Under the pieces are notes generated by a model, which saw only the letters and a program-made list of their open reading frames with translations, did no database searches and was not told where the DNA came from. Positions 830-63,291 of a stretch of DNA of 64,000 nucleotides are shown one piece after another. The first letter of the stretch is position 1. Each line of letters begins with the position of its first letter. A program made the translations under genes and the position numbers. Source of the DNA: a virus; the IMG/VR virus record IMGVR_UViG_3300008448_012183, positions 1 through 64,000 of that record. One strand, given 5' to 3'.

Positions 830-1369
830 ATGATAGAGCCAATTTTAATAAATATTAAAAAATATTCTGATAGCCGTGGTTTTTTTTATGAAAGCTATAA
901 AAAATCGTATTTACAGGAAAAAATAAAATTAGATATAAATTTCGTGCAAGACAACCATTCTGTATCTTATAAAAATGTCATTAGAGGCTTACATTATCAA
1001 TGGGATGAGCCAATGATAAAGCTTGTAAGAGTATCTTACGGGTCTATATTAGATGTCCTTGTAGATATCCGAAAAAATTCTAATTCTTTTGGAAAAATAC
1101 ATTATTACGAGCTTAATTCTGAAAACAACGACCAATTATTCGTACCAGCAGGGTTTGCACATGGTTTTGTTTGCTTGAGCGAATATGCACATGTGCAATA
1201 TAAATGTTCGGTAGAATATAATAAAAATGGCGAATCAGGAATAAATCCTTTTGATAAAGATTTAAATATTGATTGGAAAATTAATTTAGCTGATGCAATC
1301 GTATCCGATAAGGACATAAACTCAAAAAGCTTTAAAGAATATTGTTTAGAACCTAAATTTAAGGAATAA
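830..1369 (+). CDS. rmlC: dTDP-4-dehydrorhamnose 3,5-epimerase (RmlC family)
   Basis: This 179-residue protein has the usual RmlC length and cupin layout. RGLHYQ at residues 52-57 carries the catalytic histidine (H55), LDVLVDIRKNS follows at 74-84, VPAGFAHGF lies at 105-113, and the YKCSVEY stretch at 124-130 holds the conserved tyrosine. The family epimerises C3 and C5 of dTDP-4-keto-6-deoxyglucose, the third step of dTDP-L-rhamnose synthesis. It starts two bases after the glycosyltransferase stop and ends three bases before rmlB, so it is co-transcribed. It is a true RmlC cupin rather than the shorter FdtA/WxcM ketoisomerase, which argues for a rhamnose-type product unless the enzyme is bifunctional. 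Confidence 0.93.
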   Translation: MIEPILINIKKYSDSRGFFYESYKKSYLQEKIKLDINFVQDNHSVSYKNVIRGLHYQWDEPMIKLVRVSYGSILDVLVDIRKNSNSFGKIHYYELNSENNDQLFVPAGFAHGFVCLSEYAHVQYKCSVEYNKNGESGINPFDKDLNIDWKINLADAIVSDKDINSKSFKEYCLEPKFKE

Positions 1370-6050: not shown

Positions 6051-6695
6051 CTAATTATATTTGGCGATAAAGATTTAGCTGAGTTGACTAATTTTTATAT
6101 AAATAATGAAAAAAAATACGAAATAGAGTGCTTTACAGTACACAAAAGCTTTCTTACAAAAGAAACTTTCTGTGATAAACCGGTAGTGCCCTTTGAAGAC
6201 ATAGAAAAAAAATATTCTCCAAATGAATTTAAATTATTTGCACCAATGACTGGCGTAAAAATGAACGACATTAGAACAAATATTTATATGGAAGGCAAGA
6301 ATAAAGGATATAAATTTATTTCTTACGTAAGTCCAAAATGTACTAATTTTGCTTCTAAGATTGGAGAAAATTGTTTTATTCTAGAAGACAATACTTTACA
6401 ACCTTTTGTGGAAATCGGTAATAACGTTGTCATGTGGAGTGGTAATCATATAGGTCATCATAGCTTGATAAGAGACAATACATTCTTTACATCTCATGTT
6501 GTATTGTCCGGTCACTGCGACGTTGGTGAAAACTCTTGGTTTGGCGTCAATGCTACTATTAGGGATCAGACAAAAATAGGAAAATATTCTTTAATAGCTA
6601 TGGGTAGTTTAGTGACAAAAAACACAGATGAAAATGGTTTCTACATGGGAAGCCCAGCTAAAAAACAAGAAAAAAAATCTACAGAGGTTTATTGA
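6042..6695 (+). CDS. NeuD/PglD-like sugar O- or N-acyltransferase (left-handed beta-helix)
   Basis: The 217-residue protein has an N-terminal Rossmann-like part (MDKLIIFGDKDLAELTNFYI) and, from about residue 105, hexapeptide-repeat coils: IGENCFILEDN, VEIGNNVVMWSGNHIGHH, CDVGENSWFGVNATI, TKIGKYSLIAMGSLV, ending in MGSPAKK. The HIGHH segment (136-140) supplies the catalytic histidine region of the NeuD/PglD family, which acetylates sialic acids or UDP-amino-sugars. Here the product of the DegT enzyme is a sensible acceptor (inference). The gene starts in the second copy of an 11-bp duplication and its TGA overlaps the next ATG. Confidence 0.87.
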   Translation: MDKLIIFGDKDLAELTNFYINNEKKYEIECFTVHKSFLTKETFCDKPVVPFEDIEKKYSPNEFKLFAPMTGVKMNDIRTNIYMEGKNKGYKFISYVSPKCTNFASKIGENCFILEDNTLQPFVEIGNNVVMWSGNHIGHHSLIRDNTFFTSHVVLSGHCDVGENSWFGVNATIRDQTKIGKYSLIAMGSLVTKNTDENGFYMGSPAKKQEKKSTEVY

Positions 6696-7594
6696 TGTGG
6701 GAAAAAAAAGGGAATATCTTTAGCAAACACTGGGCGCAATTACCAGTTGTAGACACCTCCTATGAAGATTTTTGGAGAATATTTTATTCTCAAAGAATGG
6801 ATAACAAAAGTTATCCTATGTTCATAGATGTAAAAAAAGACAATCCAACAGAAATTATAAATGAAAGCCAATCACCAATAATAGTTTTAGGTGAATTAGG
6901 AACTTTTGATCAAGCTGGAGTAATGCCAACTGAAATTATAAACTATAATAATAAAAAATATTTATATTATATTGGGTGGTCTAATAGAAAAGATGTTCCT
7001 TATTTCAACACTATTGGATTAGCAATAAGCGAAGATGAAGGTAAAACTTTTAAAAAATTTTCCACAGGTCCAGTTTTTGGCTCTTCTTACAAAGAGCCGG
7101 GATATACTGGAACTATAAAGATTATGATTGAAAATAATATATGGAGAGCTTGGTATTTATCATGCCGAAAATGGCAAGAAATAAACGGTATTGTAGAACC
7201 TTTTTATGATATAAAATATGCAGAATCTACAAATGGAATAGATTGGGAGCCTCATAACAAAACTTGCATTCGTATGGATGAAGATTTTGCTGGGATTTCG
7301 CAAGCGTCTGTTTTAAAAATTGAAAATAAATATCATATGTGGTTTTCAGCAAGAAAGAAAACTGATTATAGAACCAATCCTAATAATAGTTACAGAATTT
7401 ATAAAGCCATATCTCATAACGGAATCGATTGGGAGTATGACAAAACTCCATCTCTGGATGTCTCTGAAACAGGTTGGGATTCTACTATGGTAGAATATCC
7501 TTATGTAATTTTTGATAAGCAAAGTTATTATATGTTTTATAATGGAAATGGGTTTGGAAAAGAAGGAATAGGATACGCAAAAATAAAAAAATAA
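6695..7594 (+). CDS. Five-bladed beta-propeller glycosidase-like protein (GH43/GH32/GH130-like)
   Basis: The sequence repeats a blade motif: IGLAISEDEGKTF, DIKYAESTNGIDWEPH, IYKAISHNGIDWEYD and GIGYAKIKK, the '(Y)A.S.DG..W' pattern of five-bladed propeller glycoside hydrolases and phosphorylases. No family-specific catalytic trio could be assigned with confidence, so hydrolase, phosphorylase or plain sugar binding all remain possible. I chose the ATG at 6695, which overlaps the previous TGA (TGATG), over the in-frame TTG three bases upstream. Length is 299 residues with no signal peptide, so a cytoplasmic role in the glycan cluster is likely. Confidence 0.72.
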   Translation: MWEKKGNIFSKHWAQLPVVDTSYEDFWRIFYSQRMDNKSYPMFIDVKKDNPTEIINESQSPIIVLGELGTFDQAGVMPTEIINYNNKKYLYYIGWSNRKDVPYFNTIGLAISEDEGKTFKKFSTGPVFGSSYKEPGYTGTIKIMIENNIWRAWYLSCRKWQEINGIVEPFYDIKYAESTNGIDWEPHNKTCIRMDEDFAGISQASVLKIENKYHMWFSARKKTDYRTNPNNSYRIYKAISHNGIDWEYDKTPSLDVSETGWDSTMVEYPYVIFDKQSYYMFYNGNGFGKEGIGYAKIKK

Positions 7595-7615
7595 TAATTT
7601 TTTAAGAACAATAAA

Positions 7616-8362
7616 ATGAAAAAACAATTAAAAGAAGATGGTTATTTATTATTAAAAAATTTTTTAGATTTATCTGTTTTGAATGATCTTAAAAAAGAAG
7701 CGGAATTATTTTTTTTAAAACAATTTCAAAATCATATTTCAAAAAATATAGAAAAATTTGAAGAAAAATATATGTTTGAATTGTTTGAAAAAAATTTTGA
7801 AACTTTTCAAAATTGTGGCAAACACATACAACATGGATCTATAAAACTACATTCTCTTGGGATTAATAATAAAATTTTAGATACTTTAAAAGAGTGTGGG
7901 CTAGAATATCCTGCTATAGCCACAAGACCAGTTCTTTTTTTTAATCATCAAAAATTAGCAAAAGATCAAGTATATTACAAAACGCCACCTCACCAAGACT
8001 GGAGTAGTATTAGAGGATCTAATGATTGTATGATTGTTTGGATACCACTAGTAGACGTAGACAAAAGTATGGGAGCATTGCGAGTAGTACCAAAGTCTCA
8101 CACAAATGGAAATTTAATGTCTAATGTTGTTGGAGGTTTTGGTGCTGTTTCAAAATATTCTAAAGAGGACTTTATTGATGTTCCAATGAATAAAGGCGAT
8201 ATATTGATATTTTCTTCTTTCTTAGTTCACGAATCAGGAGATATGGATACAGATAAAATACGCTGGTCTTGTAATTTTAGATACAACAATATCAATGATG
8301 AAGATTTTATTAAAAGAAATTATGAATTTTCATATATTTATAAGCCAAAAATTAAGGAATAA
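7616..8362 (+). CDS. Phytanoyl-CoA dioxygenase (PhyH)-family Fe(II)/2-oxoglutarate oxygenase
   Basis: The iron-binding facial triad is visible: H126 and D128 in PPHQDWSS and H205 in FSSFLVHESGD, with a basic residue (R216 in KIRWSCNFRYNN) placed to bind 2-oxoglutarate. GALRVVPKSHTNG (153-165) and KGDILIFSSF (193-202) are standard PhyH blocks. The family hydroxylates varied small molecules; some members occur in sugar-modification clusters. The 248-residue length is typical. It is separated from the propeller gene by 21 bases and followed two bases later by a glycosyltransferase, so it belongs to the same operon. Substrate unknown. Confidence 0.87.
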   Translation: MKKQLKEDGYLLLKNFLDLSVLNDLKKEAELFFLKQFQNHISKNIEKFEEKYMFELFEKNFETFQNCGKHIQHGSIKLHSLGINNKILDTLKECGLEYPAIATRPVLFFNHQKLAKDQVYYKTPPHQDWSSIRGSNDCMIVWIPLVDVDKSMGALRVVPKSHTNGNLMSNVVGGFGAVSKYSKEDFIDVPMNKGDILIFSSFLVHESGDMDTDKIRWSCNFRYNNINDEDFIKRNYEFSYIYKPKIKE

Positions 8363-53325: not shown

Positions 53326-53332
53326 AAAATAC

Positions 53333-53344
53333 TATTTATAAATA
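53333..53344 (+). promoter_or_regulatory. Candidate late promoter, TATTTATAAATA
   Basis: The exact T4-type late box TATAAATA lies at 53337-53344 inside the palindrome TATTTATAAATA, 17 bases before the ATG at 53361 and seven before its GGAGAG ribosome binding site. The window encodes a gp55-like sigma factor that would be expected to read such boxes. It overlaps a CTATTTAT 8-mer shared with the gaps at 19363 and 61819. Confidence 0.5.
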
Positions 53345-60313: not shown

Positions 60314-61522
60314 ATGAAATTTACACAAGATTATGTCAAGAGAATGATAAGAGAAGAAACAAAAAAATTATTAAAAGAAGATACCGCTTCTGATCTAGAA
60401 GCGCAAGCCGCAGCGACCGGCGCAGGCAAAAATCAACCAAAGCAAACAGGTTCTCAACATGCTAGAGATTTTCAAGCGGCTCAAGATCTTTTTAAAATTG
60501 TTCAAACCGGACAGTTGACTCGGGAACAAGCAAATGCGGTTGTAGAAGCATATAGGGCAATAAATGCTAAAAAACCTTTGCCTCAAAATGCCGTACGGAC
60601 AATTAAAGAATTAGGAGGCTCTATACCATCTACAAATATTGCAAAACCGGTTGCTCCTACTGCTGCTCCTACTGCTGCTAAACCAGTAGCTGCGGTTGGG
60701 CCTTCTGTAAATTCTACGGTTGTTCACAGGGAAGCACCGGGACAAAAATTTACAGTTCTTGAAAAAAGAGGAAATTTTGTTCTTTTAAAAGATGTAAAAG
60801 GTGAAACTTTTCAAGCTGAGTTGTCCGACTTGACAGTTGTTCAAGAATCCCGCATTAGAAGAATTGTCAAAGAAGAAATTTTAAAAGAAATGAAAGTAAG
60901 AATTAACAGCTCATTAGACGAAGAAACAATTACCTTAGATGATGACGAAGAACCAGTAACACCAAGAAGAAAATCATTTATACCAGAACCAAAGCCAACT
61001 AAAGTTGATCCTACTGTATTTACCGGGACAAGCCCAACAGTTTTAAAAGGCGATGAAATTGGAGTTAAGGATATTGTTCCTAAAGGAAGTACTGTTAAAA
61101 ACAGCCCAATTCCCGGTAAGCAATCTGGTGATCTTAATGTTTCTGGTAAATATTCTGGCATGACTGATCCTTTTAGAAGTAGAGGTGCTCAATTTCAAAC
61201 GCGCACGCAGCCAACAACACCAAAAAAGACTATTAAAATAACTCCAAAACCAGAACCTCAACCGATCATTGGAAAAATTAAAAATTACGATCCAATTGGA
61301 AATGAAACTGACGACCAATATGCTCAAGTTCCTAGACCGTTTGAGGCGCAACCAGCACGCGATCCATTAGCCGATCCTTATGCTTCAGCAACATCGCCAA
61401 CTACACCACGACCCCGTCCTCGTCCTCGTCCTAATACTGCATCCAAGAATGATCAATTTGATCCTGATGATTTGAATAATTTAGCAACGATGAGCAAAAT
61501 AATTCAAAAAATTGAAAATTAA
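60314..61522 (+). CDS. Candidate prohead core/internal protein with capsid-targeting-like leader
   Basis: The 402-residue protein opens MKFTQDYVKRMIREETKKLL, then KED; the helix ends in an L-x-E triplet (LKE, residues 20-22), the T4 gp21-type cleavage pattern. A second copy of the helix lies inside the chain at residues 177-196 (QESRIRRIVKEEILKEMK). Between them are Ala/Gln-rich and Pro/Ala-rich linkers and a small beta segment (KFTVLEKRGNFVLLKDVKG, about 145-163) that resembles an SH3-like or KOW-like barrel. The C-terminal half is proline-rich and disordered, with PRPRPRPRP near residue 370. No enzyme motif. Head-core or internal-protein role is inferred from leader and position. Confidence 0.6.
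   Translation: MKFTQDYVKRMIREETKKLLKEDTASDLEAQAAATGAGKNQPKQTGSQHARDFQAAQDLFKIVQTGQLTREQANAVVEAYRAINAKKPLPQNAVRTIKELGGSIPSTNIAKPVAPTAAPTAAKPVAAVGPSVNSTVVHREAPGQKFTVLEKRGNFVLLKDVKGETFQAELSDLTVVQESRIRRIVKEEILKEMKVRINSSLDEETITLDDDEEPVTPRRKSFIPEPKPTKVDPTVFTGTSPTVLKGDEIGVKDIVPKGSTVKNSPIPGKQSGDLNVSGKYSGMTDPFRSRGAQFQTRTQPTTPKKTIKITPKPEPQPIIGKIKNYDPIGNETDDQYAQVPRPFEAQPARDPLADPYASATSPTTPRPRPRPRPNTASKNDQFDPDDLNNLATMSKIIQKIEN
60653..60676 (+). repeat. 12-bp tandem repeat GCTCCTACTGCT (x2)
   Basis: Two exact copies at 60653-60664 and 60665-60676 encode a duplicated Ala-Pro-Thr-Ala in the linker of the 60314 protein. Confidence 0.9.
61415..61432 (+). repeat. CGTCCT hexamer repeat (x3)
   Basis: Three exact CGTCCT copies encode the Arg-Pro repeats near the C terminus of the 60314 protein. 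The tract is far more G+C-rich than its surroundings. Confidence 0.9.
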
Positions 61523-61524
61523 TA

Positions 61525-61818
61525 ATGCAACTTTTAACTTTTATATTAGCCTGTTATGGCATGACAATGATTCTTGTTTATAGCAAGATTTTTGAACAAA
61601 CAAGAAATTATTTGAAATCATTTAACAGCGAAATGCTTTCATACATGATTAAATGTTGTATGTGCATGGGTTTTTGGGTTGGTGTGGTAAATGCAACTTG
61701 TTTTTTTGATTTAGAAACAAATTGTCTTATGGCTGGTTGTATTTCATCCGGTACAACATATTTTATCAGCAGATTAGTAGATGATGACGGAATTCTTATT
61801 AAAATGAAAAATGGGTAA
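61525..61818 (+). CDS. Small membrane protein with CCMCMGFWVG motif (DUF1360-like)
   Basis: The 97-residue product has a hydrophobic N terminus (LLTFILACYGMTMILVYSKIF), then KCCMCMGFWVGVVNATCFF (C44, C45, C47 and the GFWVG turn) and a third hydrophobic segment around LMAGCISSGTTYFISRLV. A cysteine-rich motif followed by GFWxG inside a membrane segment is typical of DUF1360-like small membrane proteins of phages; role unknown. It lies between two head-region genes, two bases after the 60314 stop, and is followed by a promoter-like box. Confidence 0.72.
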   Translation: MQLLTFILACYGMTMILVYSKIFEQTRNYLKSFNSEMLSYMIKCCMCMGFWVGVVNATCFFDLETNCLMAGCISSGTTYFISRLVDDDGILIKMKNG

Positions 61819-61827
61819 CTATTTATA
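61819..61827 (+). promoter_or_regulatory. Candidate late-promoter box CTATTTATA before the 23-codon ORF
   Basis: CTATTTATA starts at the base after the previous stop and lies six bases upstream of GGAGG, the ribosome binding site of the 23-codon ORF. It is the third intergenic copy of CTATTTAT in the window. Confidence 0.4.
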
Positions 61828-61843
61828 GAAATGGAGGTATGCT

Positions 61844-61915
61844 ATGCGTACACAAGTAACTTATGTTCGTAGATATATGCTACAACCTGTTCGCCGTTGC
61901 TGCAACGGTAGCTAA
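61844..61915 (+). CDS. 23-residue basic peptide ORF
   Basis: A 23-codon ORF, MRTQVTYVRRYMLQPVRRCC then NGS, follows GGAGG (61833-61837) with ideal spacing. The peptide has six arginines, no lysine and no acidic residue, and an RRCC pair. Its arginine codons are CGT/CGC plus one AGA, whereas neighbouring genes mainly use AGA. A 6-bp inverted repeat CCGTTG/CAACGG lies within its last codons, and its stop is two bases before the strong hairpin at 61917. It may be a real micro-protein or a leader peptide. No homologue is known to me. Confidence 0.5.
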   Translation: MRTQVTYVRRYMLQPVRRCCNGS

Positions 61916-61916
61916 A

Positions 61917-61952
61917 TTTGGCCCTCTAGGACAAAAATCTTAGAGGGCCGAA
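61917..61952 (+). terminator. Strong hairpin after the 23-codon ORF, terminator or processing signal
   Basis: Fifteen consecutive pairs (two of them G-U) form between 61917-61931 and 61938-61952, with core GGCCCTCTA/TAGAGGGCC and loop CAAAAA. It is the most stable RNA structure I see in the window. Only an A+T-rich stretch (AATAAATTTTAATATT) follows rather than an immediate T run, so it could be a weak intrinsic terminator, an mRNA stabiliser or a processing site. Confidence 0.6.
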
Positions 61953-61980: not shown

Positions 61981-63291
61981 ATGAGACTAACAGAAAATTA
62001 TTTGAAGAATGTTATAAAAAGCAAATTAAAATCTTTGTTAAGCGAAGCGCCTTTAACTAAAATGAGCGTTGACGATTTTCGCAAACTACCAAACGCAGAT
62101 ACATCAATAGAAGGACCACAACTTCGTGATCGTCCAAGAATTCCAAATCCAGACGGTACTATTCCACCTCTTCCAAGGGGAACTGGTCCCGGTCGGGCAA
62201 TAAGTACAGCAACGCCAGATCCAAAGCAAGCAGAAGATGCAGCAAGGAAACAAAGACTTTTAAATACTTATCTTGAAAAAGCAAAAGCTGGAACTTTATC
62301 TGATGACGAAAAGCAAACTCTTTTATCTGGTCAATCAGTTTTTGGAGAATTACCGCCAGAGCAAAAAGCAATTCTTTCACCACCCCCTGCACCCCAAAAA
62401 CCAAAAGATAAAAGTGGTATGACAAAAGAGGCGACAGAAGTAACAAAAGAAATTCAACAATTATTAATAGATTCTGGTGTTTCTCTTAGTAAAGGAGCTA
62501 ATGGTTTATATAATCAAGAAACAGCAAATGCAGTAAATAAATGGTTTGCCGAGCATCCAGATGTTCAAAAACCTCGCGGTGTTAAATCAAATTTCTTAGC
62601 AACTATAAAACAATTTAGAGATGCTATTAAATCTGCGGCTCCACAACCAAATGATAAAGTTAAAGATATTCAAGCTTTGTTAAATTATTTAGAGAGTGAA
62701 ACTGCTGAAGGGTATAAAACAAGTCCATTACTAAAAATTACTGGTATTCTAGATGAAAAAACAATAGAAATTGCTAAAAAACATGTCGATGATAAATCCT
62801 CTTTGGATTCATTACAAGGCGATGATTTATTTAATAAAATTTATGATGATCTTCTTGGGGGCGACAGTTGGAGCTGGTATAAAGAATATGGAGAACCTAT
62901 AAAATTTATTACAAAACCGGATTATGTTTGGGATTATGTTTGGGGAGATGGAGATAAATATGAAGCAGAAAAGCAACCACCAGAAGAACCGCCAACTGCT
63001 GATAATTATTTAAATAGTCCTTATTACAAAAAAAATTCAGAAGGTATTTTTGCTGGTGAAGTTGATTTAACGCCTGAACAAAGAAAAATTTTAGATGCAA
63101 GAATGCAAAAAAGAGCTTTTGATAGAGCCAGCCCAGTAAATCAAGCAATGACTAGATACAACGATGCTCGAAAAATGAGACAAGGACTATCACTTAAAGA
63201 ATCTAGAATTTTCAAAGAATCATATATAAAAGAAATGATTAGGGAAGAATTCTTGAAAGAAATTATTGAACAGGAATTGAGAAAAATATAA
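61981..63291 (+). CDS. Head-region protein with targeting-like leader and two PG-binding-like repeats
   Basis: The 436-residue protein begins MRLTENYLKNVIKSKLKSLL, then SEAP, a helix ending in L-S-E (residues 20-22) that aligns with the start of the 60314 protein. A third copy of the helix is at the C terminus (residues 412-431, KESYIKEMIREEFLKEII). The middle has a Pro-rich linker (residues 30-75) and two segments like PG_binding_1 domains: EIQQLLIDSGVSLSKGANGLYNQETANAVNKWF split over 155-187, and VKDIQALLNYLE...ITGILDEKTIEIAKKH over 226-270. It lies three bases before the prohead protease. A packaged protein that acts on the cell wall after ejection is one reading (inference). Confidence 0.6.
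   Translation: MRLTENYLKNVIKSKLKSLLSEAPLTKMSVDDFRKLPNADTSIEGPQLRDRPRIPNPDGTIPPLPRGTGPGRAISTATPDPKQAEDAARKQRLLNTYLEKAKAGTLSDDEKQTLLSGQSVFGELPPEQKAILSPPPAPQKPKDKSGMTKEATEVTKEIQQLLIDSGVSLSKGANGLYNQETANAVNKWFAEHPDVQKPRGVKSNFLATIKQFRDAIKSAAPQPNDKVKDIQALLNYLESETAEGYKTSPLLKITGILDEKTIEIAKKHVDDKSSLDSLQGDDLFNKIYDDLLGGDSWSWYKEYGEPIKFITKPDYVWDYVWGDGDKYEAEKQPPEEPPTADNYLNSPYYKKNSEGIFAGEVDLTPEQRKILDARMQKRAFDRASPVNQAMTRYNDARKMRQGLSLKESRIFKESYIKEMIREEFLKEIIEQELRKI

What the first reader, a model, noticed from the sequence alone, without database searches (positions are those of the whole stretch)
61819..61952. Self-contained mini transcription unit encoding a 23-residue arginine-rich peptide
Within 134 bases there is a CTATTTATA box, GGAGG at ideal spacing, a 23-codon ORF with an internal inverted repeat, and a stem of 15 pairs starting two bases after its stop. 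The peptide has six arginines and an RRCC pair, and its arginine codons differ from neighbouring genes. It lies between two genes on the same strand that would not otherwise need a gap. It may be a micro-protein, a leader peptide controlling the downstream head genes, or a small RNA.
Basis: partly seen in the sequence, partly recalled or inferred. Interest (0 to 1): 0.58.

Follow-up and report, generated by a model that had tools for sequence, protein, structure and literature searches.

The report
Tiny phage protein beside DUF1360 gene
An unannotated phage gene encodes a very short conserved protein (16-44 residues) found beside the same small membrane-protein gene in many T4-like phages and in giant phages, which suggests that the two work as a pair.

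Summary
The 23-codon ORF at 61844-61915 is a real gene. Relatives occur in hundreds of uncultured T4-like contigs, with the protein motif kept while synonymous codons vary freely. Every locus found to carry the upstream gene p97 (61525-61818, a DUF1360-like membrane protein) also carries the peptide: 271 of 271, of which 188 were found without using the peptide. 0 of 92 outgroup prohead-protease loci carry either gene. Two cysteines remain, as CC or CxxxC. The peptide also lies beside a DUF1360-like gene, on the opposite strand, in a 735-kb phage and a relative, with no T4-type head gene matched nearby. The promoter box and the hairpin are real in the window's close relatives but missing in most others, while the peptide persists. 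It therefore most likely acts in trans as a partner of p97; a leader peptide or small RNA is unlikely. The biochemistry (shared Cys site, prohead start at the membrane) is inference. No family library or paper searched describes it.

The parts
61525..61818 (+). p97: 97-aa DUF1360-like membrane protein with the motif CxxCxGFWxG; the peptide's constant neighbour
   Evidence: AlphaFold2 model mean pLDDT 87.8; Foldseek matches to viral DUF1360 proteins at probability 1.00; Pfam PF07098 only E 0.073, below its cut-off; R27, C44 and C47 invariant in 62 aligned relatives
61819..61827 (+). CTATTTATA, likely late-promoter box of this phage group
   Evidence: Enriched in non-coding DNA of relatives, orientation-specific; a second copy at 53332-53340 lies 29 bases before a gene start
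61833..61837 (+). Shine-Dalgarno GGAGG
   Evidence: Sequence; GGAGG at similar spacing in many window-like relatives
61844..61915 (+). Microprotein gene, MRTQVTYVRRYMLQPVRRCCNGS, stop included
   Evidence: Relatives beside p97 in 271 of 271 p97 loci; codon table of 70 distinct cores; pN/pS 0.18 in 117 motif-selected cores
61917..61952 (+). RNA hairpin behind the microprotein gene; no U run follows
   Evidence: 8 of 12 pairs change on both sides in 22 relatives, 0 of 500 shuffles reach the covariation score
63294..63896 (+). gp21-like prohead protease, conserved downstream neighbour in T4-like relatives
   Evidence: phrog_207 head maturation protease, E 2.3e-57

Best explanation
The ORF encodes a conserved microprotein (16-44 residues in relatives; core [KR]-[WY]-x-L-Q-P-V-R-[RH]-C-C-x-G-S, or a CxxxC form) that acts in trans as the dedicated partner of the DUF1360-like membrane protein encoded just upstream (p97). 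Shown by sequence: protein-level conservation, the constant pairing with p97, conservation of two cysteines, and persistence of the peptide where promoter, hairpin, strand and next gene change. Inferred: that the two products bind each other; that the peptide's Cys pair and the invariant CxxC of p97 form one metal or disulphide site; and that in T4-like phages the pair helps start prohead assembly on the inner membrane, the step served in T4 by gp20 with the chaperone gp40. In the window's sub-group the gene has its own late-type promoter box and a 3' hairpin that may raise or stabilise its short message.
For: Of 84 loci fetched by the peptide alone, 83 carry p97 and 79 carry gp21; the one exception, L124, is a chance match in a long GC-rich reading frame. 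All 271 p97 loci among 365 carry the peptide, 188 of them fetched through gp21 or p97. 0 of 92 outgroup gp21 loci (12 Microcystis-phage-like, 80 immuto-like) have the peptide or p97. A scan of all viral contigs for RYMLx5CxNGC gave 12 hits, 12 of 12 with a DUF1360-like gene near by. In the 735-kb record LR756501 and a 108-kb contig the peptide lies beside a DUF1360-like gene on the opposite strand; E 7.5e-4 and 6.1e-5 over 36,788 fragments, best reversed-sequence control E 4.0. Cys changes from CC..S to CxxxC in several lineages, always keeping two. Where a GIY-YIG endonuclease gene breaks the ORF (L107), a chimeric copy of the motif is rebuilt at its 3' end. One copy in each of 13 contigs of 111-204 kb.
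Against: No interaction, expression or structure of the complex was shown. DUF1360-like genes without a detectable peptide exist: none found near them in L114, L116, L117, L118 and L119. In T4-like phages the link to p97 cannot be separated from the link to gp21 and from common descent of one clade; the giant-phage case rests on two related genomes. No portal, terminase or gp21 match was found in 24 kb around the giant-phage peptide, which speaks against a general head-assembly role.
Confidence: 0.68

Rival explanations
1. Leader or ribosome-arrest peptide: translation of the conserved C-terminus, with the hairpin, sets expression of the downstream head genes in cis.
For: Very short ORF, variable N-terminus, conserved C-terminus next to the stop; promoter box in front and a hairpin behind in the window-like group; where present, the stem starts 6-11 bases after a fixed point behind the CC motif.
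Against: 92 of 132 loci lack both box and hairpin. The frame runs on past the motif in 28 of 160 distinct variants. The next gene varies. The giant-phage homologue lies on the opposite strand from its partner gene. Cys position shifts while two Cys are kept.
Confidence: 0.1
2. A head or prohead-core microprotein that works with gp21 or the scaffold and is only incidentally next to p97.
For: It lies in the portal-to-gp21 cluster of T4-like relatives, often ending a few bases before gp21; basic charge would suit binding to an acidic core.
Against: The giant-phage copies keep the DUF1360-like neighbour but no gp21, portal or terminase match within 24 kb of the LR756501 copy; no gp21-type L/I-x-E cleavage site in the window peptide (motif recalled).
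Confidence: 0.17
3. The hairpin transcript is the functional product (small RNA or 3' element) and the ORF is a by-product.
For: The hairpin covaries; the GCGGGTNGCGCCCGC form is found almost only behind the peptide in 3.29 Mb.
Against: 92 of 132 loci have neither box nor such a hairpin yet keep the peptide; synonymous sites vary freely.
Confidence: 0.03

Closest known systems
DUF1360 (Pfam PF07098) phage membrane proteins, for the partner p97
   Same: Predicted fold matches DUF1360 proteins of other phages at probability 1.00; CxxCxGFW-like motif; in actinophages the gene lies between terminase and portal
   Different: Sequence score below Pfam's cut-off; the actinophage genes looked at have no detectable microprotein beside them
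Short subunits of bacterial membrane complexes such as CydX or KdpF (recalled)
   Same: A very short protein encoded next to its larger membrane partner
   Different: No membrane-spanning stretch in the 16-23-residue forms; two conserved cysteines and conserved basic residues instead
Leader and arrest peptides such as TnaC or SecM (recalled)
   Same: Size, variable N-terminus, conserved C-terminal part
   Different: Cis-context (promoter, hairpin, strand, next gene) is not conserved, the peptide is
T4 gp40 and gp20 prohead initiation at the inner membrane (PMC9958956, passages read)
   Same: A helper encoded by the phage for portal-nucleated prohead assembly at the membrane; proposed by analogy only
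   Different: No sequence relation tested or claimed

Membership tests
DUF1360 (partner p97) | Score above the Pfam gathering cut-off of 21 bits | tested here: not met
   13.5 bits, E 0.073
DUF1360 (partner p97) | Same fold as annotated DUF1360 proteins | tested here: met
   Foldseek probability 1.00 to several DUF1360-annotated viral models, TM by query 0.62-0.69, though E-values 0.036 to 0.13
Ribosome-arrest or leader peptide | Conserved cis arrangement with a controlled downstream gene | tested here: not met
   Next gene, strand, box and hairpin vary while the peptide is kept
Ribosome-arrest or leader peptide | Ribosome stalling at the conserved stretch | not testable with these tools
   Needs toeprinting or ribosome profiling
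Intrinsic terminator (hairpin 61917-61952) | GC-rich stem followed by a U run | tested here: inconclusive
   15-pair stem, but the tail is AATAAATTTT
T4 late promoter | TATAAATA box on the coding strand before late genes | tested here: not met
   TATAAATA: 3 non-coding (33 kb) against 15 coding (372 kb) in window-like loci; CTATTTATA is enriched instead
Any described family for the peptide | Match in PHROGs, Pfam, NCBIfam or PDB sequences | tested here: not met
   No credible match; the best are short chance stretches at E 0.06 to 1

The most novel reading that the evidence does not exclude
A two-gene membrane module spread over T4-like and giant phages in which a soluble peptide of as few as 16 residues is an obligatory subunit of a DUF1360-like three-helix protein, completing a four-cysteine site (two Cys from each) that anchors or licenses an assembly step at the membrane; it would be among the smallest obligatory protein subunits known.
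Probability: 0.3. Interest if true: 0.78.

Novelty: new variant of a known kind. Interest (0 to 1): 0.62.

Why it matters
Gene finders skip ORFs this short, yet here one is present in every T4-like locus examined that has its partner gene, survives interruption by an endonuclease gene, and recurs in a 735-kb phage. It gives the unexplained DUF1360 phage membrane proteins a candidate partner and a testable Cys-site hypothesis. It also offers a likely late-promoter box (CTATTTATA) for a large uncultured phage group; one survey of pelagimyophages, possibly unrelated ones, reported that its late-promoter prediction was unsuccessful (PMC7029224, passages read).

Tried and rejected
Rfam and tRNA scans of the window: nothing. 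sigma-70 promoter scan: no excess over shuffles. tblastn of the peptide and of two KW-type query forms against phage records: no credible match, so no isolated phage in that collection was shown to carry it. Weak hits of the peptide forms to Shiga toxin 2 B subunit and tyrosyl-tRNA synthetase chains (E 0.06 to 1) rest on some 10-20 residues and were rejected as chance. A programmed frameshift joining p97 and peptide was considered and dropped: the window ORF has its own SD and start after the p97 stop. The internal inverted repeat and the CGN codon bias are not conserved. p97 model against PDB: nothing. The literature search for QPVRRCC, QPVRHCC and the box listed no paper with either peptide motif among the 20 rows shown of 129; DUF1360 is held in one unrelated paper.

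Limits of the counts: the cores used for (70 distinct; L107 row dropped; 117 distinct) were chosen by motif, which lowers apparent amino-acid change; the evidence lies in the free use of synonymous codons. The model was built with some of the divergent forms it then found. Loci overlap: the 271 p97 loci are 181 distinct by sequence. The labels 'fresh' and 'marine' in my scripts are my own shorthand and were not checked against sample data. The promoter and hairpin table covers 132 loci of the 133 distinct ones (L101 dropped out); L097 in it is cut by its contig end.

Full report
What is there. The window is 64,000 bases of a 64,114-base virus record; my gene caller finds 52 genes of 60 codons or more, all on the + strand, covering 98.3%. 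Terminase (55391), portal (56961) and a gp21-like prohead protease (63294) mark a T4-like head cluster. Between p97 (61525-61818) and a 436-codon ORF (61981-63291) lies the reported unit: CTATTTATA, GGAGG, a 23-codon ORF and a 15-pair stem. The peptide has five arginines, and the stem starts one base after the stop.

It is a gene. Scans for relatives of gp21 and p97 gave 109 loci besides the window's own L001; tblastn finds the peptide at E 0.01 or better in 107 of the 110, and the other three (L051, L058, L089) hold divergent forms. In 70 distinct cores the residues V, R, C and G near the anchor never change although four Val codons, five Arg codons and four Gly codons are used, and the nearby Leu uses six codons (cores anchored on the motif, L107 row dropped). 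Over 117 distinct motif-selected cores pN/pS is 0.18, with pS 0.83. Among 133 distinct variants the predicted length is 16-44 residues (start codons chosen by my rule). One copy was found in each of 13 contigs of 111-204 kb, and one in the window's own record.

Its partner. Of 84 loci fetched by the peptide alone, 83 carry p97 and 79 carry gp21; the exception, L124, is a chance match. Of 79 loci fetched by a more distant gp21, 73 have peptide and p97 at the first thresholds, 5 have p97 with a divergent peptide missed by the first threshold, and 1 (L266) has almost no sequence upstream of gp21. With a model that includes divergent forms, 271 of 271 p97 loci (181 distinct by sequence) among 365 have the peptide within 2.5 kb; 188 of these were not fetched by the peptide. 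None of 12 Microcystis-phage-like and 80 immuto-like gp21 loci has either gene. p97 is predicted as a helical membrane protein with three long helices and CxxC at the start of one, like DUF1360 proteins of other phages, though it misses Pfam's cut-off. In actinophage isolates such genes sit between terminase and portal, without a detectable peptide.

Giant phages. Beside the DUF1360-like gene of LR756501 (735 kb) a 22-codon ORF on the opposite strand reads MKRYMLRPCARCANGCRCYKSK; a 108-kb contig related to it has MKRYMLRAVAHCANGC. Against a profile of T4-like forms they score E 7.5e-4 and 6.1e-5 over 36,788 fragments; the best reversed-sequence control is E 4.0. A scan of all viral contigs with RYMLx5CxNGC gave 12 hits, each with a DUF1360-like gene near by: eleven T4-like contigs and the 108-kb one. 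No gp21, portal or terminase match appeared in 24 kb around the LR756501 copy.

Two cysteines. Most forms have CC. RRCTEGC, RRCKNGC, RRCKSGC, RNCKKGC and RMCKKGC have lost the second C but gained one three residues later. The pair is kept in every form I read through, except the broken copies in L107 and L190, each of which sits next to an intact one.

Interruption. In L107 a GIY-YIG ORF (Pfam E 1.6e-9) begins just after ..NQPV, and a new start inside its 3' end makes MSIKKLNIVKTNDRKWFLPVVRHCCKGA before gp21. L012 has a similar chimeric form. The peptide appears to have been selected back (inference).

Box and hairpin. CTATTTATA lies in non-coding DNA of 34 window-like loci 28 times in 33 kb, against 4 times in 372 kb of coding DNA; in 24 loci of the other type it is 13 in 25 kb against 7 in 284 kb. 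Many of these are the same site in relatives. The hairpin covaries: 8 of 12 pairs change on both sides in 22 sequences, 39 cells against a shuffled mean of 11.8. Of 132 loci, 19 have box and hairpin, 20 hairpin only, 1 box only (contig end) and 92 neither; 1.6% of shuffles have such a hairpin. So these parts belong to sub-groups, the peptide to all. The hairpin has no U run and is not a standard terminator.

Mechanism. Steps shown: protein-level selection, pairing with p97, Cys-pair retention, independence from the cis-context. Steps inferred: physical binding, a shared Cys site, and a role in starting prohead assembly at the membrane by analogy with T4 gp20 and gp40 (PMC9958956, passages read). 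The giant-phage context argues against making head assembly essential to the idea.

Novelty. No hit in PHROGs, Pfam, NCBIfam or PDB sequences beyond chance. None of the 20 papers listed in the motif search holds either peptide motif. In the review of phage small proteins PMC11323111 the terms capsid and prohead do not occur in the main text (term search only).

Noticed in passing
window 53332-53340 and 61819-61827: CTATTTATA occurs on the coding strand 20-30 bases before genes here and in relatives and may be the late-promoter box of this phage group.
   Followed up: partly
L107 5670-6326 and gp21 6426-8078: A GIY-YIG endonuclease ORF interrupts the microprotein gene, and the neighbouring gp21 gene is split by an intein-like insertion.
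   Followed up: partly
L190 3904-4069: Tandem copies of the microprotein gene, the first with a stop codon in place of the second Cys, the second intact.
   Followed up: no
behind the peptide in L050, L063, L064, L080, L092 and others: GCGGGTNGCGCCCGC hairpin that is either after the stop or read in frame as RVAPA; almost absent elsewhere in 3.29 Mb of loci.
   Followed up: partly
window 60314-61522 and 61981-63291: Two otherwise different proteins share a charged helix motif of the type ESxIKxMIREEFLKE; some head-cluster ORFs of relatives start with a similar MKITKxxLKxIIKEE stretch, perhaps a targeting signal.
   Followed up: partly
L375 about 1020-1110, minus strand: What looks by eye like a GIY-YIG endonuclease remnant directly behind the giant-phage form of the peptide.
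   Followed up: no
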